Part shown: positions 11,233-39,235 of the stretch, piece after piece
Position numbering within the stretch: position 1 is the stretch's first letter
How the letters are laid out: every line of letters starts with the position of its first letter
From: a virus
IMG/VR virus record: IMGVR_UViG_3300023301_000006
Coordinates: 1 to 64,000 of that record
Direction: 5' to 3' (one strand)
Length of the DNA: 64,000 bases
Position numbers and translations under genes: made by a program
Notes under the pieces: generated by a model
Databases searched by the model: none
Told to the model about the DNA's origin: nothing
Seen by the model: only the letters and a program-made list of their open reading frames with translations

Positions 11233-14200
11233 TTATCTTACAGGACAGTGACCACTTTCACATCCTGCTCCATCGTCTATCTCGAAGTCCGAACCATCTT
11301 CATAATCTGATAGTAACTCTTCGTCGAACTTTGGAAGTTCTTGAACCATATTCTTGTATTCGTCTTCAGTTATACTCTCGAAAGGAAGTAACTCATAAAA
11401 GCTATCATCTAATGATAAGAAAGATATTCCTACGAAACAATCCCAATTATCCCACAACCATTCCTCTACTAAGTCCCATTCATCTTTTCTAACATGGACA
11501 GTAATACTAGCATTATGGTCTACGAATTCTTCCATTAATAATTTGTACTCATCCAATTGTTCAATTGCACCTACGTCGTACTTAGTCCTACCCTTTGGAG
11601 CTTTAACAGGAAATTCAAATACTTTCGTAGAATGCTCTTCTCTAGTTTGTCCTACTTCTGGCTTCCATTCGAATCCGGAGTCTATCATAGACATCGCAAC
11701 AGGGTCTTTAGCTGATACTCTAACTCTTCTTATATAAAAAGGACTATGTGACCAATGAATACCCGAAGAAGCACTGTTAGGTAATATTGAAACTGTTCCT
11801 GCTGGTTGTGCTGTTGTTACTAATTCTGCTTTTGTTACATTATATTTCTTAGCTAATTCTTCATTCATGTTGTTTGCAACACTTCTCATGAATTTCAACA
11901 GCTTTTTCTTTTCATCTTGACTAATATTTCCTTTGTTTATAAAGTCTTGATATCCAGTCATTGAAACGCCAATTATTCTATCTTCTCTTGCAACATCATC
12001 CCACTCCAGTAAGTCCAACTCTTGTAGACTAATAATGAATGCTATATAAGTTGCCCATTCTACTGATTGCTCTAATTCATCATATAATATCCCTCCTGAT
12101 TCGTCTAAGAAAGATAACATGGATATAATGGTTAAATTACAATGTTGTTTCGATTTTAAAAGTATTTCCGCACCTTACCACACTTACTTTCATAAGCCAA
12201 CTTTAAGTTGTTGTAGTCTGGACTATACCATATTACATTTAAGTAATGAGATATTATAGTCTCTGAACATCCCCTATAAAATAAGGTTTTGATGCTGATT
12301 GTCCAATTCATACAATTTTTAACATTCGCGTTTATAGTTTCCTATTACGCTGTAGTTTGTATGACTCTAAGGAGTTTCCAGCAGTTTAATCTCTTTTAAA
12401 TCCACATGTTTGGTCTATGGATTAAGTCCTTCTGCGTCTGGTTTTCTTCTTTGAATCTCTTCTAGATTAGCTATTCCCACTTATATTAATCATAGACGCT
12501 ATTCATATGACCAGTCCTTAAAATGTAATAGGGACTGCTATATATTTCTATATAGGTTAGACTATATCATGACTCATTTGAGTCTCTTCCGCTTCGAATA
12601 CCAATAACTTGTATTCTACTCCTTTTCAGGATAGTCGTTGAACTTTAACAGTGTTGGAAGTTACATGTAACACTATTCTTAGCTGCTGATTGTCTTTGCC
12701 ATTACGCAGTAAGAGTTTCCAGCAATTCAAAAGATTTATAGAACCCAGTTTTTACTTTAGGCTCTCCAGAAACTTTCATAGTTTGAACATGCTCGTGTAA
12801 AGCCTCTCTTGCAGGTTTTTTCTTATACAGTACAGTGTTATTGCTCATTTGTCTATGTTTTATATCTGTGTCTATTTGCCATTTACCATTAACTTCTGTA
12901 TATAAGTTAGTCTTTGCATTTCTTGTTTCGTAATCGTCAGCAGACACTAAGGCAATTTCAGCTGCTCTCCTTACCATTTATATTCGAACATGTTCGTTAG
13001 GCATATCCCGTTCTCCTATGAACTGCTATATGTTGCCATATAGATTAGACTATATCTTCACTCTTATACATTTAAGCAAAAGAGGTTTCCTGTTTCCACT
13101 CACTTGAGTGTACGTCTTTCGACTAGTCGTTGCACCTTTTATAATTAATCTTCTTTTTATTTTTTTTACCAATCTTCCTTACAGAAGATTAATTATAACT
13201 TGGCTCAGAATTGTCTTAAGATACACTTAAGAGTTTCTCTGAATTTAAGAAATGTTTTTTTGTGTTGGAGGCATAAAATTTACCACCAACAACTATTGCT
13301 TCTGCTATTAAGCCATTAATATCTAACATATCAATAGGCTTTAGCTTAACTCTATGTCTGGTTATCTTACCACCGTTAGAATTTTTAATAATTCTGTCTA
13401 TTCCACTAAAAGACTCTTTTAAAGGTATATGACCACTTGCTGTGCCACCAAATGTCTTTAGGACCTCTCCCGCAGGACGAACATTATCATAGTTGAATAA
13501 GATAGTTTTTATTAAACCATCACTTGAACTAGCTTTGTAGTTGACTAAAAACTCTAAATAAATCTTTAATGATTCAGTCCAACCTCTTTTAGAATCTCCA
13601 ACTACAATCTCTAGTATAGAATTATTACTTAATGTCGTTGTTGTTAACTCTTGTCTAGCTAGTCTTGGAACAGGCTGATAGTCCTTGTGAATTATTTCTA
13701 TGTCTTGTCTTACTGGTTGTATCTTTTCAACGTCTTCTTTCAGTATTCTATATCCGACACCACTACCCAACATTAATAAGTACATTGCGTCAACTAGGTT
13801 AAATATATCGTCCATTGTGACATAACTACAATTAAAAGCACTTTGGAAATTTCTTTTAATGGATTCTGTCCCACCCGTATATCTGATTCTGCCAGAAGAA
13901 AATACTTTGAAATTGTACATCAAGTCAAATAATTCTTCTGCTTTCTCAGAGTCACCTTTGGGGTCTAACTCTATCATATAGTCCACAACTCTTGCGTTCA
14001 TTTCCAACCAAGTTTCTCGTCTATTTATGCCTTTAATAAATCTAGAGTATGTTCTATAGAAAGTAAATTTTGATAACTCTGAGTCAAATGGATTTGGGTC
14101 TCTAGCATAATCTCTTAAAAACTCTTTGTTCAAATATTTAAATTTCTTGTAAGGGTGCCACCTCTCCCTTATCTGTTTGTGCTTTTCTCTATATAATATA

Positions 14201-15619: not shown

Positions 15620-18600
15620 TTAACTATGTTTCTCACTTCTCATTTCTAATTTTCCATCGTCTGTTATTTTTTCAATTAAGTAAACTAAACTTTGCTTTGT
15701 CCTGGAATAATCTTTCCCCCTAAAAGTGGTTTCGCTCGACCTATATCCAGTAATCATAATTTTGTTGCCCCTACTAAAAAAACTACTATCTATAATAGAG
15801 CTATTCTTTTTGACTTGTCTATCGTAGTACGCAAAATCAGAACCTTTAAACTTTACAGTAACGACTCCACTCCTAGTTAATATTTGAGTCATATGTTTAT
15901 TCTTATTTCTGCTAAGGCAAGTTCCAATTATCGTTGATAAGTGAAATACTGGGTACTTGTCTTTCCAATAAAACTTCACAGGTTTTATTTTTAAGTCTTT
16001 AAATTTATCCACGAATGGATAATATTCATAGTCTATATAGTCTAATTCATTGTCTGTGGCATAATAGGATATAGAATCCATTTCCCATTTACCTATTGTT
16101 CCTTCAGTATAGTGGGACGCTTCTTCCACTATTATGATTTTATTGTACTCTTTTAAAAGTTCTTTTTCATTCTCTTTAATAAATTTTCTTAACTTATCTG
16201 CATCTTTCTCATAAGTAGACTCGAAAACTGATGACTCTACTAAATATTTGTCTTTCTTGTAAACAACTTTTAACTCTGGGTGTTCTACATTTAAAAATTC
16301 AATCATCATTTCTTGTAATGGAAAATATTTTTTGTCATCTACCTTTATTTCTTCGTTTGAACGTAGTATTTTTCTTAAGTACCACATTATTGAGCTATTC
16401 TTAACTTTTGTATTACTAAAAAATTTAGCATCAAATAGTCCAGCCATATTCCTTAAAGACAAGGAAGTTTTTACCTTTGCTTTTCCAGCAATATAATCCA
16501 TTAATAATTCTCTTCTGTCTTTTTCTTCAATGTTCCTGAAGGCATTTGACTTAATCAAGGATATATTTTTCCTCTTTGACGGTTTTATTCTTTTATAAAA
16601 GTCTCCATAGCTAGTGTATGGTCTACTCTCTACTATTTCAGTAACAAGGTCATCACCAACGTAAGACATTCCTTTTAGTCCGAATAATATAACTCCTCCA
16701 TCAAAGTCTGGGGTAAATACATATCCAGATTTATTGATGTCTGGAGGTGCTATTGTTATTCCAACTTGCTCCATATTACTAATTGCCACAGCTACTTTAC
16801 CATAGTTAGAAGATGTGTTCTTATCTCCATCTTGGTCTATTGCACCACTTTCAACTGTTAAACAAGCTGAATTCCAAGCTAAGTCATTATACTCATATGT
16901 TAAGTTTAAAATTTGCAAAGCTATCATAGAATAAGGTAAGGTATGATTCCGACTAAAACTATCATGTTGTTCCCACATTTTTGTGGGCATGGACTAACTC
17001 TTTAAAGTTTAATATCTCTCTAATAAGGTATTAAACTTTATCCACTGTTTGGAGAATAGGAATTTCACCTAAACTCTACTTCCCTTGCGGGAATAGTCTC
17101 TACACTCGCTTTCGCTAGCACGGGATTGTCATATCCATAAATGGACTTAGATTTCCCCGTTAGCACTAAATTAATAGTACACCCTATATTTATAGGTTAA
17201 GTGGAATGGGCAATTTTATTTACCCAAGTTGAGGAACTACACAATGATGCCATACGTAATTTATTATTTCCTCTCTTGCTCCAGTTCTTTCCTTCGCTTT
17301 ATCGAAGTAATCTTCTTTTAACTTATCTATTAATTTAGCTTTCTTCTTTGCTATGGCTTTTCTAGCCTTATGTGCCTCTACAACAGTAAAGCCAGATATG
17401 GATTCGTCCATTAGGATTTCCATAATGTCTTCTTGTGTAGCCGCAATGCCGTAACTTTTATCTAAGTGTTTCTTCATTGTCATTATCTCATCTTCGTTTA
17501 AGCCTTGTAGGTGCATTTCTTCATACCAAAGACTTATATCCTTTCTAAACTTAATAAACTTATCTAATGGTTGAATACTTCCTCCACTAGATGATAATCT
17601 CATTAATGAGTTTGCTGTTGCCATCTCCACCAATGAATGAGGTGCTACTTCTCTTATGGCTTTAGAACCCACCATTGTATCAAATTGGAATAGAGAAACA
17701 ATTTCACCTTTCGCAGCTTTGTCCCACATTTCTAAGTTGTCATACTCAAGGACAGCAGGAGATAAATACTTATCATAAGTCTCCCTTAGTGTTTCTTGTC
17801 TTTCCATCGCACCGTTGGTGATTAAATGATTCATAGTTATTCTAATTTTATCTAGAATCTTTACAGTTAAGAAGTCAAATTTGACTCCTCCCATATACAT
17901 CTTTATCCTATGTTTCCACAGGGACGGACTATTTCATGTTCTATTTTAAAATAGAACTCTTGCACTTCGACTGGGACAATATCCAGTCTACGCCTCTCGG
18001 CTAGTCTCTACATCTTTCTCTTGCTTCAATAATAGTTTTTATAAAGTTCTGAGGTTTTAAAAGCCCTATAAAGTTGGGAATGCCCCTTTAAATTTAAGTC
18101 TCTTAGGACTAAAGTTACTGAGTCATATACCTCAACTAGATTCCAATTGATATCATATTTGTAAACTTTTTTAGAACTTGTTGCACCGACATCAACTTTA
18201 CCAATATTAGAACCAACAACTCCTTTTTTAGATTCACTTATTTTTTATTGTTATTTACACTATTATTAAAACTTAAGACTTGACACGAGATTGCCATATT
18301 GCCGAAGCAACTTAGGTTTCCTCGTTAGCTTAACCCCTTTAATAAGGATTAAACACCCTTTTTGTCGTAAGGTTCACAAAATTTACTATAACTCTCACAA
18401 GTTATAGGGACTATATAATTAATCCGAATCTGACATGTCAAACTGAGTTGTAGGAACATCACTCGGAGACATCATCAAAGCATTCCTTTTATAATAAGGT
18501 TCATTATATATATAGATACCAGAGGCATGTATGCTTCTCTTGTCTATAATTCCCTCGAATGCTAATATCGTCTCCTGTAATTTTTTATCTTCATATTCTT

Positions 18601-20313: not shown

Positions 20314-22056
20314 TTAAAAAACGAAAGAACTACTTGCTTTTATCTCACACTCATCTACGATAATTTGAGGGACAACCTTACCATTTCACTCATTCGTGTT
20401 CGGCTTACCTATTAAACTAATTTCAAGGGAGTTACCATTTGGTATATTTGCAATTATTTCCTCTGCTCTAAACATTATATACTCAACACCATTAAAAATA
20501 ATCTTTATAATATTAGATTTCTTTCCGATTAGTTGTAGCTCTGATGCGTCTATTTTAATATTAGATACCATAATCTTAGGCTCTCTCAATCTAGTTCCCC
20601 AAAGGTGTTTCATATCATTTAATTTAAAGATGTACTCGCTACTTACTTCAGTGGAGTCCATTAAGAAGTCTATGCTAAATACTTTTTCAAAATCATAGTC
20701 TTTTAATAGGTTGTTACTTAGCTCTATTAATGGTTTTATATTTTCTGGTTTTATACAAGTTCCGAAAGCTGCTTGATGACCTTCTGCGTATTCTACTAAA
20801 CCAGTATTGTTTAAGTACTTCTTAAATTCATTTAGTTTTGTTCCAGAGGGGCATCTACCACTACCATAAAATAAACCGTCTTCTTCATTCTTTAAAAGTA
20901 TTAAAGTTGGTCTATTATACTTGTCTTGTATTTTATTGGCAACTAGTCCAGTCATAGACCGCTCAATTATATTAGTCGCATTTAAGATTATAACTTTATT
21001 TCCTAATTGGTCTTTCTCAACTAACTGTGTTAATTTTTTCATACCATTAGTTTCTGCCTTCTTTTGTCTTATCTTAATATTACCTGCCATTCTAGCCATT
21101 TCCTTTTCAATGAATACTAGTTGTCCTTTGTTGTTTCTACCAGAACCTATTACCTTACTACCGTCTAGTATAAATGCTTTAAACATCATAATCTTCTCTT
21201 GCATATTTCCAAGTCTAATGACAGCATTTATCAATGGAGCTATATAGAACATTATGTCTATTGGATAAACATTGTCACCCAAAGAGTAGCTCTTTTTCTT
21301 TATTAATGCCTTGATGAATAAGTTTCCTTCAATATCATCATTCATTAATTTTACGCCTCTTCTGACTATTACAATATTATCTCTCAACCTCATGTCCATA
21401 TTATCTGAGGCTATCCCTAATGCTGCTAAATCTACTAACTGTTCTGAGAAATTAATACTATTTACATCATCTAGTGCTTGACAAAATTTAAACGCAACTC
21501 CAGCTCCACTTAAGAATTTATTGTTGTAGTCTGGAGATAATTGGTTGTTAACCACCATTGCATATTCAGATTCTTTACTTGCTTCATGGTGGTCTAGTAC
21601 AATAATACTTGTACCAGCGTCTGAGAGTTCTTTATGCTTTTTATATTGACTACTACCCGCATCTGGAATTATTACTAAGTCATATTCTTTCATCTTTTCA
21701 AGCTCTTCTCCATCTGGTAGTCCTACTTCTTTGTTTTCGTGTATAAAAAAGTCCATATCAGTAAGATTATAAACCTTATATAAATACTTTCATATGATAG
21801 ATGCTGAGGTATAACCATCAACGTCACTATCTACTACTATCATTACTTTTTTGTCACCTTGGCTAAGTTGTTCATCTAAGAACACAGATGTCTCTTTAAG
21901 ATTCTTTAACCTATACTTATCTTCTTCGTAATCTACGCTTGTGTCTTCTCTACTTAAAAATATGTTAATATCATCTGGACTTACTCCTCTTTTTAAAAGT
22001 AAATCCTCTTGAATAGAACTAGAAAGTCCTACTAAATTGTCTAATGAAAATTGCAT
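20314..22056 (-). CDS. recJ: RecJ-like single-strand DNA exonuclease (DHH family)
   Basis: 580 residues through two TGA codons (21790 and 20386). DHH motifs: V-D-S-D-V-D-G-Y-T-S-A (I), I-I-P-D-A-G-S (II), L-D-H-H-E-A (III) and D-L-A-A-L-G-I-A-S-D-N (IV). The DHHA1-type region has G-S-G-R-C. The end reads N-E-W-N-G-K-V-V-P-Q-I-I-V, the OB-domain tail in which Trp comes from TGA; without reassignment the protein would lose this end and its first 88 residues. It is a Mn2+-dependent 5'-3' exonuclease in recombination and repair, placed between the primase and the polymerase. Confidence 0.82.
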
Positions 22057-22301: not shown

Positions 22302-23411
22302 CTACATTCTAATTTTTTTATGATATATTTTTTCGAAGACTTCTTTGCCCTGGTCTATTGGAGATTGCTTTCTCCTTAATAATTCATGCTCATCAACCAT
22401 TATAAAGACAGTAAAGTAAGGCTTTAAAAACTCTGCTAGTTTAAGCATGTTCTCAAAACATTCAACTCCTTCATCTGAGTAAAAATCTGTGTAATCTTTG
22501 TCTAAAGCCAAAACAACTCTATCTACATCTAAATGTAATAGCAATTTCACTTGTTGACTACTTATCTTTTTTCCAGCCATGGCTAAAGTAAAGTTGTTAT
22601 TCGGATAAATCGTTTCTGCTTTTAGAACACTTTTTTCTGATTCAAAAATTACTACTTGTCTTAAATTACGTATTACTTTTTTATTCCTGTATATACCATA
22701 AAAGTTCATGGAGGTAGGATGTGAAAAAATCTTCTTTTGTATCGTCATAGGCATGTATTTATATCCATCATTGATTTCACTTTTTCTAAGTGCTCTACCT
22801 CTTATTCCTATCAGATTATTATTTATATCGTAGTGGGGAATAACTACCCTGTTATCTGTTATTGAATATTTTATATTAAACTTCTTCATTGAGTCTATAG
22901 ATATTCCCTCTTGGATTCATCCTTTATAGAAAGCATCTTTATAAAAATTTATTGTGTAACTGGGTATCTTTTTAATTACCTGTATCTCTTCTTTACCATC
23001 TTCCATTGCTCTTTTGTATTCATCTATAAAATCTCATGTAAACTGTGTGTCTCTTTCTCTCTCTGTTTCTGTTTCTATACCAAAACCTAAGTTTATAGTT
23101 GTATGGTTTACAACGTATTCTATAGATTCTTCTAAACTTATCTTGTATCCTCTATACCACATTGTATCCTGTACTAACCCATATATATCATACGCATCTT
23201 GACCTCCTGTATAACATTTAAAAATCCCAGTTTCGAGATAATAATATAATTTATAACTCATCTTATCGTCTGGGTGGTGGTGGCACACTGTTTGGAAGAC
23301 AAGGCTATCTTTCCTTCTTTGAGGATAACTACTACCTAAGGACATTAAAACATCAATGATGTCATCCTCAGTTAGCTTGTCTCTTATGTCTTCTTTCATT
23401 TCAAAGAACAT
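22302..23411 (-). CDS. dnaG: DnaG-like primase
   Basis: 369 residues with TGA at 23034 and 22917 read as Trp. The N-terminus has a zinc-site pattern (V-C-H-H-H ... F-K-C-Y-T-G-G), where ordinary DnaG has C-H-x-x-C ... C. The TOPRIM domain has V-I-F-E-S-E-K-S (the Glu) and V-L-A-L-D-K-D-Y (the Asp pair). It makes RNA primers for the phage replisome. It is shorter than host DnaG and has no helicase-interaction domain that I can recognise. The start lies 15 bases after the helicase stop, with GGGAGG between them. Confidence 0.8.
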
Positions 23412-23426
23412 TTAAGCACCTCCCAC

Positions 23427-26400
23427 TTAAAAGGTTTCGCTAGGGACATCCTCTGTACCCTGTTGTCTTTTTTTCTGTTCATTCTCAATAGTTATTACTG
23501 TTGACTTCATTGGTATTAATTCATATTTCGAATTAGTGACAAATAAATCAGTTATTCTACACGTTCCCAAATCTGCTATCGACCATAATTTTACGCCCTT
23601 GTACTTAGAACGTCTGTTCTTGTATACATGGAACACTATATTAGGTACTTCTAAGAAATTCTCATCTAAGATATGGGATATAGCTTTAATATCTTTTTCT
23701 GTTGGTTCTAAAGCAATTATTCCAACATCAATTTTCGTTTATACCGTCACTTTCGTGATATTTAATACGGACTAGACTATATCTGCACCTCCCTAGATGG
23801 GAGGGACTGGCTCTTCGTAATAAGGAATTACACCTTAAAACTACTCCCTTTATTGGCTGGGATAGTCGTTACACCTTTAACTAAACTTGGCACGGGATTG
23901 TCATAGGATTTCTCCCTTAGAGTTTCCCCGTTAGCACTAAATTAATAGCACACCTTACATTTGTAAGTTCACCAGTACCTAACTACGCCATTGCTGACAT
24001 AGACGACTCTAGTTTACTTTTTATTCGCATAGATTTATAATATTTTCTATGCTACTTACTTCTATTTTTTTTCAATTTCAACACACCTTTCTAAGATGCG
24101 AATAAAAAGTTATTCAAATCTGCCATTGATTTTGCCGTGTTACTCTTGTGTTTCCACAAGCACTGACTATCTCTTACTCTCCTACCAAGGAGAGAATTTC
24201 TGTTTCGGTTCTCAGTAGTTTAATTACTTAAAACTACGTTACTTATCAATAGTAACCCTACTTTCCATCTAACTGGAAATAGTCGATACAGCGACTTACT
24301 TAATACATTATTAAGTAATATGCCACGAGATTACCATAGCTCTCACCTTAGGCTTCCTCGTTAGCTTTAATTTGTTAAATTAAAACCCCACTTGATATGC
24401 GGATAAGAAATTTAGTGGCGTAAAAACACCACGTAATAAATTTTGTGTAGCTTGGTCTACTTTATCCCAGTCACCATTAACTTGCGTAGCAGTATATATA
24501 AAGACTCCTAACTCATTGGCTATCTTCTTTAATCTACTTACAAACATCAACAGAACATTATCTTCTCTTAGTCTGACTCCTCTACTGGCAGAAGCAATTT
24601 CGGCAAGTATCTTTAAAGTAGTGTGAACATAATCGAAAAATACATAATGTACATCATGCTTTAATTTATGTCTCGTTACCATATTGTCTACTTGTTGAAT
24701 ATTATGATTAGACAAGTGTTCTATCCAAATTGGAGCTCCCTTTATGATGTGTGCAGCTTCTATTACCCTTTCCTTTTCTCCTTCGTCATATTCTCCATCT
24801 AATATATGTGCCTCATTTACATTTGAGACAAAGGCAAGGAATAATGTTTGTATCTCTTGTATTTCTAGCTCTGTAGTAATAAATAGTGATGGCATACTTA
24901 TACCATTAGATACTCAATCATTTTTCTTTGAGTCCCAAACTTTATCTACTGCTAGGTTTATAGCATCTCCCGCACTGAATCTAGTATTGTGAGTTACAAT
25001 ATAATCATTCATTAGGAACAAGTGTTCATCGTTGTCAACTGTAAAACAAGTCATCTCTGTAGAGAAACCCATTTTTTCTATATTTACTATTGGATTATAA
25101 TCTTTATGCTCTTTTCTTTTTAACGTTAAAACATACTTATTCGCAATATTTAATTTTCTAGAAAACCTAAATACTTTTAGCTTATCTTCGTGTGGCATTT
25201 GTATATTAATTTTATAACAAACTCCTGTAGAGTATTTATCTCTTATGTCCTCTATGATTGTTGGTATATAACCAAGACTTCTAGCTAAACTCACAACGTC
25301 ATCTTTAAGTTTTACACTAATAGTGTGATAAGCAACTCTTCCTTTTTTATCTATTGAGCCATCTGTATCAAGAAGCCCCTGTAGTAGGCACATTCTTTGG
25401 TCTATAGACCCCAATAAATAGTCGTCAGGAATAAATTTATCTTCACTTTTGGCATTCCATAAGTCTTTGTAACCTATTGATTCTTCAACAGAAATTCTGT
25501 TGTTAGTGTTTTTTTCTTTCCTAAAGAACCAAGAATAGTTTTCACTTTTTTCTTTCTCATAGTGCCACCCCTCTAATTTGGACATTGTAGATATTATTTC
25601 TTCATCGGCAGCAGAGAACGTTAAATCTCTTCTTCCACTTACATACCTGAAACTTCCATCTCCCAATAGTGCTCCAAAAGTGTAGGGTTTAAGTCCATAT
25701 TCTTTTTCATTATACTCAACTGCACCATTTATCGGAACTTTAAAAGTATACCCACTTGTTCCTTTAAATCCACCAAGAGATTTAGCTTCTTCGAGTATCT
25801 GCTTAGTAGTTTTTGTCTTATGGGCACATCTTCTATCTGTAAAATATTCCCATAAGTGTTCGTCACATGTTTCGGCAACTCTACCATCAGCGAAAGTAAC
25901 TTTGTTTATTTCTTTTTCACTCTCTTGCGGATGGACGCCCACTACTTTTGTTGGCTTTCCATTTCTTCCAAAAATGTAAGAACCAATTTTTACCTCATCA
26001 ACCCTTTTAAATCCTTCTGGAGTTGGTATCTTAGTATAGTTTGGGATAGCCTTCCCCACACCAGTAGGAGCACTTCTCATATAGAGTTTTTTAAGTCTTG
26101 CACCTCTTACGATACCGTTTATATAACTGCCATTTAAAGGTAGTCCAATTGCAGGTTTTTCTAATAAGTCATCTATTAAACCAACAATATTTTGACCAGC
26201 TCTTTGTCCATAACTATCTGCACTCATTTCAAAGCTTTGTCTAACCTCTACTATCTTCATGTCTACTAGATTAATTATTTCATTTATAGACATCTTGTCT
26301 AAACCATTTTGCATTTTTTCTTTCTTGTCTGAATTAAGTTCGTCTGGGTCATATATAAATCTTATGTCTACCCCAGACTTCAAATAAGCCCTCAATAAAG

Positions 26401-26755
26401 AGAACTTTTTTACACGATTATAGTAATACACAAAATTGTCTCCATCAGCACTATTCTTTGCAAATTCAAGAGCTTCTAGTCCTCTATTACTCCGAAATAT
26501 TTCATACTGCTCTGGATACTTATTTAAATAACTGTCTATCGCAATAGAGTCCAACCTATCCACTCCAGAATTAACTAAATTATTTATCGCAGAGAAAACA
26601 ATTCTATGATGTCTTGCTACAAAATCTGACACCTCTAATTTAAATCTATCATGTTTTAATAATGTTGTTGGGTTGTTCAAAAGAGCACCAAATAACATTA
26701 ATACTGCTTTGTTGTCGTACAATTCTTCTATATTTATATCTTTAAAACTACTCAA
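23427..26755 (-). CDS. dnaB: DnaB-like replicative helicase with an intein and two introns
   Basis: Exons 26755-24428, 24136-24119 and 23735-23427 make 884 codons. Residues 236-590 are an intein in the P-loop, so the mature helicase is 529 residues. The N-terminal DnaB domain is followed by S-A-P-T-G-V-G-K/T-R-F-S-A-G (P-loop after intein removal), then the RecA-fold core. Junctions read L-L-R-G/A-K-S-M-A-D/K-I-D-V-G-I, the usual DnaB motif-4 region. The end has V-Y-K-N-R-R. A TGA at 24914 gives N-D-W-V-S-N. It unwinds the fork and pairs with the primase encoded just downstream. Confidence 0.85.
23736..24118 (-). ncRNA. Group I intron 2 of the helicase gene (383 nt)
   Basis: Contains AACGGGGAAA ... 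CAATCCCGTGCC and P7 strand GATATAGTCT; the last base is G. A long hairpin (CTTTTTATTCGCAT with ATGCGAATAAAAAG) lies near the 5' end. The P1 pairing is short (AGAT with a distant GTCT), so the 5' boundary rests mainly on the protein junction D/K-I-D-V-G. Confidence 0.75.
24119..24136 (-). other. 18-nt microexon of the helicase gene
   Basis: Six codons, Ala-Lys-Ser-Met-Ala-Asp, lying between two group I introns. They complete the helicase motif R-G-A-K-S-M-A-D-K-I-D-V-G. Both flanking introns have their own core elements. Confidence 0.8.
24137..24427 (-). ncRNA. Group I intron 1 of the helicase gene (291 nt)
   Basis: Exon end GTGGT pairs with guide GCCAC 8 bases into the intron, with U.G at the splice site; the intron ends in G. 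AACGAGGAAG ... CTCGTGGC core and P7 strand AGATAGTCA are present. No ORF. Confidence 0.8.
24986..26050 (-). mobile_element. Intein with LAGLIDADG endonuclease in the helicase P-loop
   Basis: 355 residues inserted between Lys and Thr of the P-loop. The N-terminal block is A-I-P-N-Y-T-K-I-P-T-P-E-G-F, with Ala instead of Cys or Ser at position 1. The C-terminal block ends I-V-T-H-N, followed by Thr as +1 residue. Two LAGLIDADG-type helices are seen (F-G-A-L-L-G-D-G-S and L-Q-G-L-L-D-T-D-G-S), so it may still home. Ala-1 inteins are known to splice by attack of the +1 residue. Confidence 0.85.
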
Positions 26756-36156: not shown

Positions 36157-36738
36157 GGTCTTTTAAAATTTAGTAATAACCACAACTAACCCAGTGAATA
36201 AAAAGTTTAACTAGCTTTTCTGGGACATATAGAAGATAGAGAGGTACGTTCTAAGGATATTTTGAATGTATAATCTTTTGCAGATAAGTAATTAAAAGCG
36301 AAAAGGAAGAAACTTCCAATTATAATATGTGTTGCAAATCTATTATTGTACTCAAAAGTACAAACCTAGTCGTTGTAATAATCCGTCTTCTAACCGAAGA
36401 TAACCTAAAATCTAGAGCCTATGGACGGCTTGTAGGGACTTAGGAATCCAACGAATACAATCAGTCTTGAACAGAGGAAACTCTGGTATAAGATTAGAAT
36501 TTGGTGCAAGTAGCCCTATGACTAAACAAAATTGGAATAACTTAAAATATAAAGTTATCAAGATGAATAGCGGGTGAAAGTTGCAAGTACACAATCTTGC
36601 TTAGGATTTTATTGGGGTAGAAAGTATGGGGGTAGCTCCTCTGTGCTCATCCTACTCTGCCTAGTGACTGAATATGATATGGTAATAGACTTGTAGAGTG
36701 AAGATTCAGTTGTGATTATTACTAAGTTTTAAAAGACT
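36157..36738 (+). ncRNA. Large structured RNA, ROOL-like
   Basis: About 580 nt without a usable reading frame, transcribed from a consensus promoter. Its two ends form a 20-bp stem (36158-36177 with 36718-36737) whose only deviation is one G.U pair. Inside are further hairpins and a GAGGAAACTC segment. Size, a long closing stem, a phage genome and a position directly before a tRNA array all match ROOL RNAs, described from Bacillota and phages and reported to assemble into large multimers. GOLLD is the alternative but is usually longer. The assignment is by architecture, not by alignment. Confidence 0.6.
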
Positions 36739-36821: not shown

Positions 36822-36893
36822 GGGAATATAGTCAAGCGGTTAAGACACTACACTTTCACTGTAGTATCGCAAGTTCGATTCTTGCTATTCTCA
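36822..36893 (+). tRNA. tRNA-Glu (UUC)
   Basis: Cloverleaf with acceptor GGGAATA/TATTCTC, anticodon loop CTTTCAC and encoded CCA (36894-36896). Confidence 0.9.
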
Positions 36894-36949
36894 CCATATA
36901 CCTTTTCCCCTTTGTTGTGTGGGAAATTAAATATAGCACAACTACATTA

Positions 36950-37022
36950 TTGCCCTTTCGTCTAATGGTTAGGACGCCAGACTTTCACTCTGGAAACTTG
37001 AGTTCGACTCTCAAAAGGGTAA
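36950..37022 (+). tRNA. tRNA-Glu (UUC), second copy
   Basis: Acceptor TGCCCTT/AAGGGTA, anticodon loop CTTTCAC, encoded CCA. It differs from the first Glu tRNA in most stems, so it is not a recent duplicate. Confidence 0.85.
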
Positions 37023-37030
37023 CCAAATAA

Positions 37031-37113
37031 GGAGTAGTATGCAAATGGTTAAGCAAACGGGTTGCTAACTCGTGGCGGTTAAACGCTTGTAGGTTCAAGT
37101 CCTATCTACTCTT
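37031..37113 (+). tRNA. tRNA-Ser (GCU)
   Basis: Acceptor GGAGTAG/CTACTCT, loop TTGCTAA, long variable arm, encoded CCA. Confidence 0.85.
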
Positions 37114-37120
37114 CCAATAT

Positions 37121-37195
37121 GTAAATATAGCTCAGTTTGGTTAGAGCATCTGGTTGCCAATCAGAATGTCGTGGGTTCAATTCCCACTATTTACT
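37121..37195 (+). tRNA. tRNA-Gly (GCC)
   Basis: Acceptor GTAAATA/TATTTAC, loop TTGCCAA, encoded CCA. Confidence 0.88.
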
Positions 37196-37204
37196 CCAAA
37201 ATAA

Positions 37205-37278
37205 TGCAGAGTGGAACGTTGGTTTTTCCATCGAGGCTCATATCCTTGATTACATGGGTTCGATTCCCATCTCTGCAT
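37205..37278 (+). tRNA. tRNA with CAU anticodon (Met)
   Basis: Acceptor TGCAGAG/CTCTGCA, anticodon stem CGAGG/CCTTG with loop CTCATAT, encoded CCA. Confidence 0.75.
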
Positions 37279-37284
37279 CCATAA

Positions 37285-37373
37285 GGAAGGTTACTCAAAT
37301 GGTTATACGAGCGTAGCTTTGAAAGCTAATGTGTCTGAAATACGGCTTGGGGGTTCGAATCCCTCACCTTCTT
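37285..37373 (+). tRNA. tRNA-Ser (UGA)
   Basis: Acceptor GGAAGGT/ACCTTCT, loop TTTGAAA, long variable arm, encoded CCA. Confidence 0.88.
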
Positions 37374-37382
37374 CCAAAATGT

Positions 37383-37454
37383 GTATGTATAGCTAAAAGG
37401 CTTAGCATTCGGCTGTTAACCGAAAGTATATTGGTTCGAATCCAATTACATACG
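37383..37454 (+). tRNA. tRNA-Asn (GUU)
   Basis: Acceptor GTATGTA/TACATAC, loop CTGTTAA, encoded CCA. Confidence 0.9.
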
Positions 37455-37457
37455 CCA

Positions 37458-37728
37458 TAAGTCCCACTATGAGGGCATAAAGGCTTTGATGGAAACCCCA
37501 TCTGAAAGAGCGTATGGAAGCTCTAGTGTCTAAATCACATTAGTTTATAGATACGACATTTAAAAACAAATTTTTAAGAAATTGAATTGTGATAGCCTAT
37601 TAAGACTAAGGGCTTAAAATACAGAGTCTCACCATTGGCGGCAACCGAAAGTCGTGGGCTTAATTGCCCTTTCAAGTTATTAGGAACCCATTGGGGCTAA
37701 AGGTTTAAAATAGATAGTCCTATTATAA
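37458..37728 (+). other. Unresolved structured segment inside the tRNA array
   Basis: 271 bases with no ORF. Two D-arm-like repeats are visible (GACTaaGG...AGTC near 37603 and GGCTaaaGG...AGTC near 37695). There is also an anticodon-arm-like GGCGGCAACCG and a GGGCTTAATTGCCC hairpin. It could hold degenerate tRNAs or another structured RNA. I could not fold a complete tRNA. Confidence 0.35.
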
Positions 37729-37799
37729 CTAGGTGTGGGATAATGGTTGTCCGCTAGCTTTGGGAGCTAGTGACGGGGGTTCGATTCCTCCCACTTAGA
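37729..37799 (+). tRNA. tRNA-Pro (UGG)
   Basis: Acceptor CTAGGTG/CACTTAG, anticodon stem CTAGC/GCTAG with loop TTTGGGA. Unlike the others it has no encoded CCA. Confidence 0.82.
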
Positions 37800-37866
37800 A
37801 GTGGATATAAGTATATTGTATCTAGTTCTAAGTGCACAATAGTTTTGAGTAAATAAAAAAATGTTG

Positions 37867-37895
37867 TTGCAAGATTATTCATTTAATGATATAAT
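37867..37895 (+). promoter_or_regulatory. Promoter inside the tRNA array
   Basis: TTGCAA, 17 bases, TATAAT, extended -10, then the shared ATAAGTATAGAAAG leader. It starts a second tRNA transcript. Confidence 0.75.
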
Positions 37896-37924
37896 ATAAG
37901 TATAGAAAGAAATAAAAAAAATAA

Positions 37925-37998
37925 GGTCGTCTAATCCAACTGGCAGAGATAATAGGTTTAAGCCCTATCAAGTGTGGGTTCAACTCCCACGGCGACTA
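37925..37998 (+). tRNA. tRNA-Leu (UAA)
   Basis: Acceptor GGTCGTC/GGCGACT, anticodon loop TTTAAGC, encoded CCA. It lacks the long variable arm normal for bacterial tRNA-Leu, so the amino acid is assigned from the anticodon only. Confidence 0.7.
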
Positions 37999-38008
37999 CC
38001 AATAATAA

Positions 38009-38079
38009 TGTGATATAGTCAAGTGGTAAGACAATAGACTTTGAATCTATCAGCCTTGGTTCGAATCCAAGTATCACAA
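38009..38079 (+). tRNA. tRNA-Gln (UUG)
   Basis: Acceptor TGTGATA/TATCACA, loop CTTTGAA, encoded CCA. Confidence 0.9.
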
Positions 38080-38082
38080 CCA

Positions 38083-38251
38083 GAATGAAGGAGTAGAGGT
38101 CGCACCTCGAGGTAGGATGAAAGCTATCCGTAAAGGGAAAGCGGATAAATATCTCTGATTGATAGTTAGAGAAAAGTTTTTTGTAGTCTTAATAATACCA
38201 CCAACGCATTGGCTCTAAACGTTGAAAAAAATATAGAGAGCCATTAAGTAT
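38083..38251 (+). other. Unresolved structured segment between tRNA-Gln and tRNA-His
   Basis: 169 bases with no ORF. It contains several short hairpins (GGTCGCACC region, GGATgaaagcTATCC, and GGCTCT...AGAGCC near 38210-38242). It may be a decayed tRNA cluster or a separate small RNA; no family recognised. Confidence 0.3.
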
Positions 38252-38323
38252 GGTGGTTATAGCTCAATGGTAGAGCACATGGTTGTGGTCCGTGCTACTT
38301 GGGTTCGATTCCCAATAATTACC
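38252..38323 (+). tRNA. tRNA-His (GUG)
   Basis: Has the extra G at position -1 facing C73, acceptor GTGGTTA/TAATTAC, loop TTGTGGT, encoded CCA. Confidence 0.9.
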
Positions 38324-38330
38324 CCAATAA

Positions 38331-38404
38331 GCTCCAATAGCTCAATCTGGTAGAGCAACTGCCTTGTAAGCAGTAGGTTGTAGGTTCAATTCCTATTTGG
38401 AGCT
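38331..38404 (+). tRNA. tRNA-Thr (UGU)
   Basis: Acceptor GCTCCAA/TTGGAGC, loop CTTGTAA, encoded CCA. Confidence 0.92.
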
Positions 38405-38443
38405 CCAAAATCTTTTCCATACCAAAGGAAAAGTGTTTAATAT

Positions 38444-38525
38444 GGTATAGCTGAGCACTGGTGAGCTCCGCAGACTGTAAATTTGTCGTCGAAAGGCTTT
38501 GTTGGTTCAACTCCAACCTATACCA
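38444..38525 (+). tRNA. tRNA-Tyr (GUA)
   Basis: Acceptor GGTATAG/CTATACC, loop CTGTAAA, long variable arm, encoded CCA. Confidence 0.9.
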
Positions 38526-38533
38526 CCAAATAT

Positions 38534-38606
38534 GTTCCAGTAACTCAGTTGGGAGAGTGTCTGCCTTACAAGCAGAAGGTCGTAGGTTCGAGTCCTACTT
38601 GGAACA
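38534..38606 (+). tRNA. tRNA-Val (UAC)
   Basis: Acceptor GTTCCAG/TTGGAAC, loop CTTACAA, encoded CCA. Confidence 0.92.
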
Positions 38607-38615
38607 CCAAAATAT

Positions 38616-38687
38616 GCGGATATCGTATAATGCTTATTACCTCTGGCTTCCAACCAGATGACGAGAGTTGAATTCTCTCTATCCGCT
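38616..38687 (+). tRNA. tRNA-Gly (UCC)
   Basis: Acceptor GCGGATA/TATCCGC, loop CTTCCAA, encoded CCA. Confidence 0.9.
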
Positions 38688-38713
38688 CCAAATTACTAAT
38701 AGGAGGCAAAGAA

Positions 38714-38806
38714 ATGTGAATATGTGAAAAATGTTCAAAAACTTATAATTATCGTCCAAAAGATGATATTTGTGAGAAATGTACTGCAGATTGTTATTTT
38801 CAATAA
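38714..38806 (+). CDS. Tiny zinc-finger-like protein
   Basis: 30 residues, M-W-I-C-E-K-C ... I-C-E-K-C-T-A-D-C, with four or five Cys in two C-x-x-C pairs. The second codon is TGA (Trp), so standard-code gene finders would not see it. AGGAGG lies 8 bases before the ATG. It sits within the tRNA array, so it is probably co-transcribed with tRNAs. Confidence 0.6.
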
Positions 38807-38824
38807 AAAGGAGGAGGTACTACA

Positions 38825-39145
38825 ATGATGACTGAAGAAGAATTATTTGAAGACTTTGACACTTGAGAAGATAGGTTCTTAGAAGCTTACGAAAATGGTG
38901 TGAAATTTGATGAAAGTCTTATGGGAAATTTAGCTTGGGAAGCAGAAGTACAAAATGAACATGACAAGCTTCGTTGGCAAATAGTAATGGAATCTATATT
39001 CCAAGTCAAGAACAGATACTTTTGTATTGACTGGCAAAAAGGTTTAACAGAGAGCCAAATAGATTCATTCTCAGAACAACCATATGAAGTTGAGAAGATA
39101 GAAAGAGAAGTTACTAAGATGGTTGTTACTTGGGTAAAGAAATAA
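38825..39145 (+). CDS. Hypothetical protein, paralogue of the gene at 10692
   Basis: 106 residues with TGA at 38864 (F-D-T-W-E-D). The second half aligns with the 110-residue product at 10692-11024 (S-I-F ... Y-x-V-E-x-I-E-x-E). Ribosome site GGAGGAGG. It is embedded in the tRNA array between tRNA-Gly and a CAU tRNA. Function unknown. Confidence 0.65.
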
Positions 39146-39153
39146 CCATATTA

Positions 39154-39227
39154 GGACCTGTAACTCAGTTGATTAGAGTATTCGACTCATAATCGAACGG
39201 TCATTGGTTTAAATCCAATCAGGTCCA
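39154..39227 (+). tRNA. tRNA with CAU anticodon (probably Ile2)
   Basis: Acceptor GGACCTG/CAGGTCC, loop CTCATAA, encoded CCA. The GGACC start resembles lysidine-modified tRNA-Ile2 of Bacillota, which would read AUA, a very frequent codon here. Elongator Met is the alternative. Confidence 0.75.
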
Positions 39228-39235
39228 CCAAATAT

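What the first reader, a model, noticed from the sequence alone, without database searches (positions are those of the whole stretch)
24119..24136. 18-nt microexon between two group I introns
The conserved helicase motif R-G-A-K-S-M-A-D-K-I-D-V-G is split so that six codons stand alone between two self-splicing introns with separate core elements. Such a short exon leaves little room for the P1 and P10 pairings of both introns and demands an ordered splicing pathway.
Basis: partly seen in the sequence, partly recalled or inferred. Interest (0 to 1): 0.72.

Follow-up and report, generated by a model that had tools for sequence, protein, structure and literature searches.

The report
Six-codon exon between two self-splicing introns
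In an uncultured phage, the gene for the DNA-replication helicase is cut twice by self-removing RNA introns only 18 letters apart, leaving a six-amino-acid exon; relatives that carry one of the introns, or neither, show that this came from two separate intron invasions, an extreme case of a known arrangement.

Summary
Both introns match Rfam group I full length (32.6 and 32.3 bits, below the gathering score). A near-identical phage (L006/L002) lacks intron 1 and reads the 18 nt straight out of exon 1. A Halanaerobiales MAG contig (L083) also has only intron 2. Two rumen phages (L076, L077) have an intron only at site 1. About 60 homologues have neither. A second metagenome contig (L001) has both introns at 99.9% identity. 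So two independently used insertion sites 18 nt apart are both filled. Exon inclusion is most likely; skipping would be in-frame but would delete residues invariant in 63 of 63 homologues. Precedents exist (Twort orf142, 23 nt, with skipping; mitochondrial mini-exons). Splicing itself was not observed.

The parts
24428..24895 (-). Exon 1 (3' part), DnaB-like helicase C-terminal domain, ends ...TTACGTGGT (LLRG)
   Evidence: PF03796 E 1.8e-9; 100% to L001, 57% to intron-less L003
24136..24427 (-). Intron 1 (292 nt), group I, no ORF; begins GUUUUUACGCCAC, ends AACACG
   Evidence: RF00028 32.6 bits; absent in L006 and L083; boundaries
24415..24421 (-). Intron 1 guide ACGCCAC: 7-bp P1 with exon GUGGU + intron GU, U.G pair at the splice site
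   Evidence: fold -10.4 kcal/mol; a 7-bp match alone is not significant, 11% of shuffles
24118..24135 (-). 18-nt microexon GCAAAATCAATGGCAGAT = AKSMAD
23736..24117 (-). Intron 2 (382 nt), group I, homing endonuclease ORF deleted; ends GGUAUAAACG
   Evidence: RF00028 32.3 bits; 74.8% to L083 intron, 99.7% to L006 intron; 13 pairs with both-side changes
24096..24110 (-). 5' arm of 15-bp perfect inverted repeat ACTTTTTATTCGCAT; closes the loop that held the endonuclease gene
   Evidence: self-match I2 8-22/88-102
24016..24030 (-). 3' arm of that inverted repeat
23999..24009 (-). Predicted intron 2 guide GAGUC-GU-CUAU pairing microexon AUGG-CA-GAU|UU (P1)
   Evidence: same register gives 7 bp in L083
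24044..24050 (-). Deletion scar: single ATAGAAA where L006 has two copies flanking most of its endonuclease coding region
23427..23735 (-). Exon 3, AAAATTGATGTTGG... (KIDVG... to the stop)
   Evidence: 100% protein identity to L006 exon 3

Best explanation
The helicase pre-mRNA carries two separate group I introns inserted 18 nt apart in the conserved RG-(A/S)K..AD-K motif. Each cuts itself out by two guanosine-driven transesterifications. Intron 1 recognises exon 1 (GUGGU) through a local guide sequence (P1) and probably aligns GCAAAA of the microexon by P10. Intron 2 recognises the microexon's 3' end (GAU, extended by AUGG) with a guide that lies beyond a long stem which once held a LAGLIDADG gene. 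The contacts sit side by side, so either order works and the normal product includes the microexon (LLRGAKSMADKIDVG). The arrangement most likely arose by sequential invasion: intron 2 first (seen alone in L006 and L083), then intron 1, which arrived with a short converted stretch of exon 1. Shown: sequence anatomy, empty-site alleles and recurrence of both sites. Inferred: base-pairing, splicing and its order, and the order of invasion.
For: RF00028 hits on both flanks. Single open frame after joining. Natural empty site for intron 1 in L006 (CTTAGGGGA|GCAAAATCAATGGCAGAT) and in L083. Two-intron gene assembled in another metagenome, L001, 99.93% over 1,501 nt. Intron at exactly site 1 (RG|AK) in L076/L077, with a GIY-YIG ORF. 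Intron one codon further on in staphylococcal phage PG-2021_68, with intron-less sister DH5. LAGLIDADG ORF in intron 2 of L006 and L083. Paired changes in helices of both introns (13 and 24 pairs). Seven synonymous differences in the last 13 nt of exon 1, against 33 in 468 overall, p 5.8e-6. Motif residues invariant in 63/63.
Against: No RNA data. Both Rfam scores are below the curated cut-off, and the relatives' introns were not found by Rfam at E 0.001. P10 of intron 2 was not found. P1 of intron 2 is weak (5 bp, or 5 + 4 around an internal loop). The covariation rests on only three sequences per intron.
Confidence: 0.85

Rival explanations
1. Exon skipping dominates: exon 1 is joined straight to exon 3, giving a helicase without AKSMAD, as reported for Twort orf142 and SIOphi.
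For: Skipping stays in frame (LLRG-KIDVG). Skipping around short exons is documented for group I introns. The intron 2 guide can also pair with the end of exon 1 (7 positions, mostly G.U).
Against: It would delete K158 and D162, invariant in 63/63 homologues. The two introns are dissimilar (57 nt at 74% is the best match), unlike Twort introns 2 and 3. The intron 2 5' region folds better with the microexon (-25.7 against -21.9 kcal/mol). The intron 1 guide pairs poorly with the microexon (-3.7 against -10.4).
Confidence: 0.08
2. One composite intron or twintron of about 692 nt replaces both, and the six residues are absent from the protein.
For: Only the closeness of the two cores.
Against: Each core matches RF00028 in full. 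Intron 2 occurs alone in L006 and L083, and an intron occurs alone at site 1 in L076/L077. The six codons are intact and conserved.
Confidence: 0.02
3. The introns are decayed and no longer splice, so this phage's helicase is a pseudogene or is supplied otherwise.
For: Both introns lack an endonuclease ORF and score below the Rfam cut-off.
Against: Exons keep an open frame with almost only synonymous changes against L002/L006. Cores keep conserved elements with compensatory changes. An intact two-intron copy was assembled from a second sample.
Confidence: 0.05

Closest known systems
Staphylococcus phage Twort orf142, introns 2 and 3
   Same: Two group I introns in a phage protein gene flank a very short exon (23 nt), as cited in PMC10136302.
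   Different: Different gene (tail tube, not helicase). Its two introns are highly similar and skipping was seen; here the introns are dissimilar and the exon is 18 nt.
Bastillevirinae phiNIT1 ribonucleotide reductase gene and SIOphi terminase (PMC11878797)
   Same: A small exon between two introns confirmed by cDNA; exon skipping in SIOphi.
   Different: Exon length not given in the text read; other genes; Bacillus phages.
Coxiella burnetii 23S rRNA introns
   Same: Two group I introns of different subgroups flank a 34-nt exon (PMC10136302).
   Different: rRNA gene, host chromosome, longer exon.
Mitochondrial mini-exons (PMC10352661)
   Same: Exons shorter than about four codons between introns occur regularly.
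   Different: Organelle genes; groups I and II mixed; often protein-assisted (the last from general knowledge).

Membership tests
Group I introns (RF00028) | Conserved core over the full model | tested here: met
   Both match positions 1-253 at E about 4e-6; bits 32.6/32.3 are below the 50-bit gathering score
Group I introns (RF00028) | Upstream exon ends in U, intron ends in G | tested here: met
   GGU|G...ACG|GCA and GAU|U...ACG|AAA
Group I introns (RF00028) | P1 between exon and guide with U.G at the splice site | tested here: met
   Intron 1: 7 bp; intron 2: 5 bp plus a 4-bp extension, 7 bp in L083
Group I introns (RF00028) | P10 with the 3' exon | tested here: inconclusive
   Intron 1: G-C plus four A-U with one mismatch, read by eye; intron 2: none found
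Group I introns (RF00028) | Self-splicing with exogenous G | not testable with these tools
   Needs in vitro transcripts
Mobile intron with homing endonuclease | Endonuclease ORF present | tested here: not met
   Absent in both window introns; LAGLIDADG ORF in the intron 2 alleles L006 and L083, GIY-YIG at site 1 in L076
Twort-type exon-skipping intron pair | Highly similar tandem introns | tested here: not met
   Best match between introns is 57 nt at 74%
Twort-type exon-skipping intron pair | Skipped product observed | not testable with these tools
   No RNA data

The most novel reading that the evidence does not exclude
The 18-nt exon is divided almost completely between the P10 of one ribozyme and the P1 of the next, and a regulated in-frame skip of AKSMAD makes a second, altered helicase that controls phage replication.
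Probability: 0.06. Interest if true: 0.65.

Novelty: new member of a known kind. Interest (0 to 1): 0.4.

Why it matters
It gives a natural allelic series at one locus (no intron, site 1 only, site 2 only, both) with which to ask how two ribozymes share a very short exon, and why skipping happens in some tandem pairs and not in others. It also shows one helicase motif acting as a repeated landing site for different introns. At 18 nt it is shorter than the phage examples with stated lengths in the papers read (23 nt in Twort), though not shorter than mitochondrial mini-exons.

Tried and rejected
Rfam scan of the relatives found nothing at E 0.001, so it could not confirm their introns. The pattern search for intron 1's P1 gave one extra contig, L116, a chance match in unrelated coding sequence. 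Loci L110-L114, brought in by the endonuclease, have it in other genes. The local hairpin for intron 2's P1 (AGAU/AUCU) was dropped because L083 lacks it, in favour of the register beyond the long stem. The 1999 Twort paper is not held, so the 23-nt figure is taken from PMC10136302.

Full report
What is there. The window is 64 kb of a 72.4-kb uncultured virus record. The gene is a DnaB-like replicative helicase on the minus strand (PF03796), whose relatives in known phages are SPbeta-type and enterococcal phage helicases. Joining 24895-24428, 24135-24118 and 23735-23427 restores one frame through NLLRG-AKSMAD-KIDVG. With the corrected boundaries the exon upstream of each intron ends in U and each intron ends in G.

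The two introns. Intron 1 is 292 nt and intron 2 is 382 nt. Each matches the full RF00028 model at E about 4e-6, but at 32-33 bits against a gathering score of 50. The two are not copies of each other: their best mutual match is 57 nt at 74%. Intron 2 is 75% identical to an intron in L083, and its 3' end resembles sequences in staphylococcal phages, several of them in terminase genes. Thirteen predicted pairs of intron 2 and 24 of intron 1 (aligned with the rumen site-1 introns) keep pairing through changes on both sides; with three sequences each this is suggestive only.

Independent evidence for each boundary. L002 and L006 are two contigs of one metagenome that overlap by 123 identical bases. 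They carry the same helicase without intron 1...CTACTTAGGGGA|GCAAAATCAATGGCAGAT, then intron 2. L083, a contig binned with a Halanaerobiales genome, has 82% identity to the helicase, no intron 1, and intron 2 at the same site. L076 and L077, large phages with about 39% identity, have an intron at exactly RG|AK and none at D|K. Staphylococcus phage PG-2021_68 has an intron one codon further on (RGG|SATAD), where its sister DH5 has none. Sixty-three homologous loci read straight through the motif. L001, from another metagenome, has both introns at 99.93% identity over 1,501 nt, so the arrangement is unlikely to be a one-off assembly error.

History. In L006 and L083 intron 2 holds a LAGLIDADG-type endonuclease gene of 273 and 266 aa. 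The window copy has lost it by a deletion of about 720 bp between two ATAGAAA repeats, leaving one copy. The gene sat in a loop closed by a 15-bp perfect stem. The last 13 nt of exon 1 next to intron 1 differ from the intron-less allele at 7 positions, all synonymous, against 33 differences in 468 nt overall (p 5.8e-6). This is what co-conversion during homing, or adaptation to the guide, would leave. The closest relative of intron 1 found is an intron in the recJ-like gene of L006, a site that is empty in the window, so intron 1 may have come from another gene rather than from the lineage in L076 and L077.

How it works. Intron 1's guide ACGCCAC pairs with exon GUGGU and the first two intron bases (7 bp, -10.4 kcal/mol, U.G at the splice site); a match of that length alone arises in 11% of shuffles. 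Its likely P10 pairs GCAAAA of the microexon with UUUUAC (one C-A mismatch; read by eye). Intron 2's guide GAGUC pairs with GAU|UU, and after a 2x2 internal loop CUAU can pair with AUGG; the same register gives 7 bp in L083. So microexon nt 1-6 and 10-18 are used by different introns without overlap. Nothing in this requires one intron to leave first. Intron 2 does not need intron 1, since it exists without it.

Skipping. Skipping would keep the frame, so it cannot be excluded from sequence. Against it as the main route: K158 and D162 are invariant in 63 of 63 homologues, the introns are dissimilar, and the 5' part of intron 2 folds better with the microexon than with exon 1 (-25.7 against -21.9 kcal/mol).

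Known cases. A 23-nt exon between two group I introns of Twort orf142 and a 34-nt exon in Coxiella 23S rRNA are cited in PMC10136302. A small exon in phiNIT1 and skipping in SIOphi are in PMC11878797. Exons under about four codons are regular in mitochondrial genes (PMC10352661). Searches of the held papers returned no report of this helicase case. The finding is therefore a new, unusually tight member of a known kind.

Noticed in passing
24914-26755 (-): The same helicase carries an intein in its P-loop (GVGK|AIPNYTKI...VTHN|TR, first residue Ala), so the gene would need one protein splice and two RNA splices.
   Followed up: partly
helicase, primase, recJ-like and dnaE frames, e.g. 22302-23411, 20314-22056: TGA appears to be read as Trp in many genes, yet ARAGORN lists no tRNA with anticodon UCA in the window.
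   Followed up: no
12257-13291, 17058-18325 (-): Further group I introns in the nrdE-like and dnaE-like genes, one with remains of an ORF.
   Followed up: partly
36166-36726 (+) and 36822-39230 (+): ROOL RNA (293 bits) directly upstream of a tRNA array.
   Followed up: no
L006 4240-5160: Intron related to intron 1 inside the recJ-like gene; the window's recJ (about 20775) is empty at that site.
   Followed up: partly
L077 3080-3800: The GIY-YIG ORF has in-frame TAG codons, suggesting a reassigned code in that phage.
   Followed up: no
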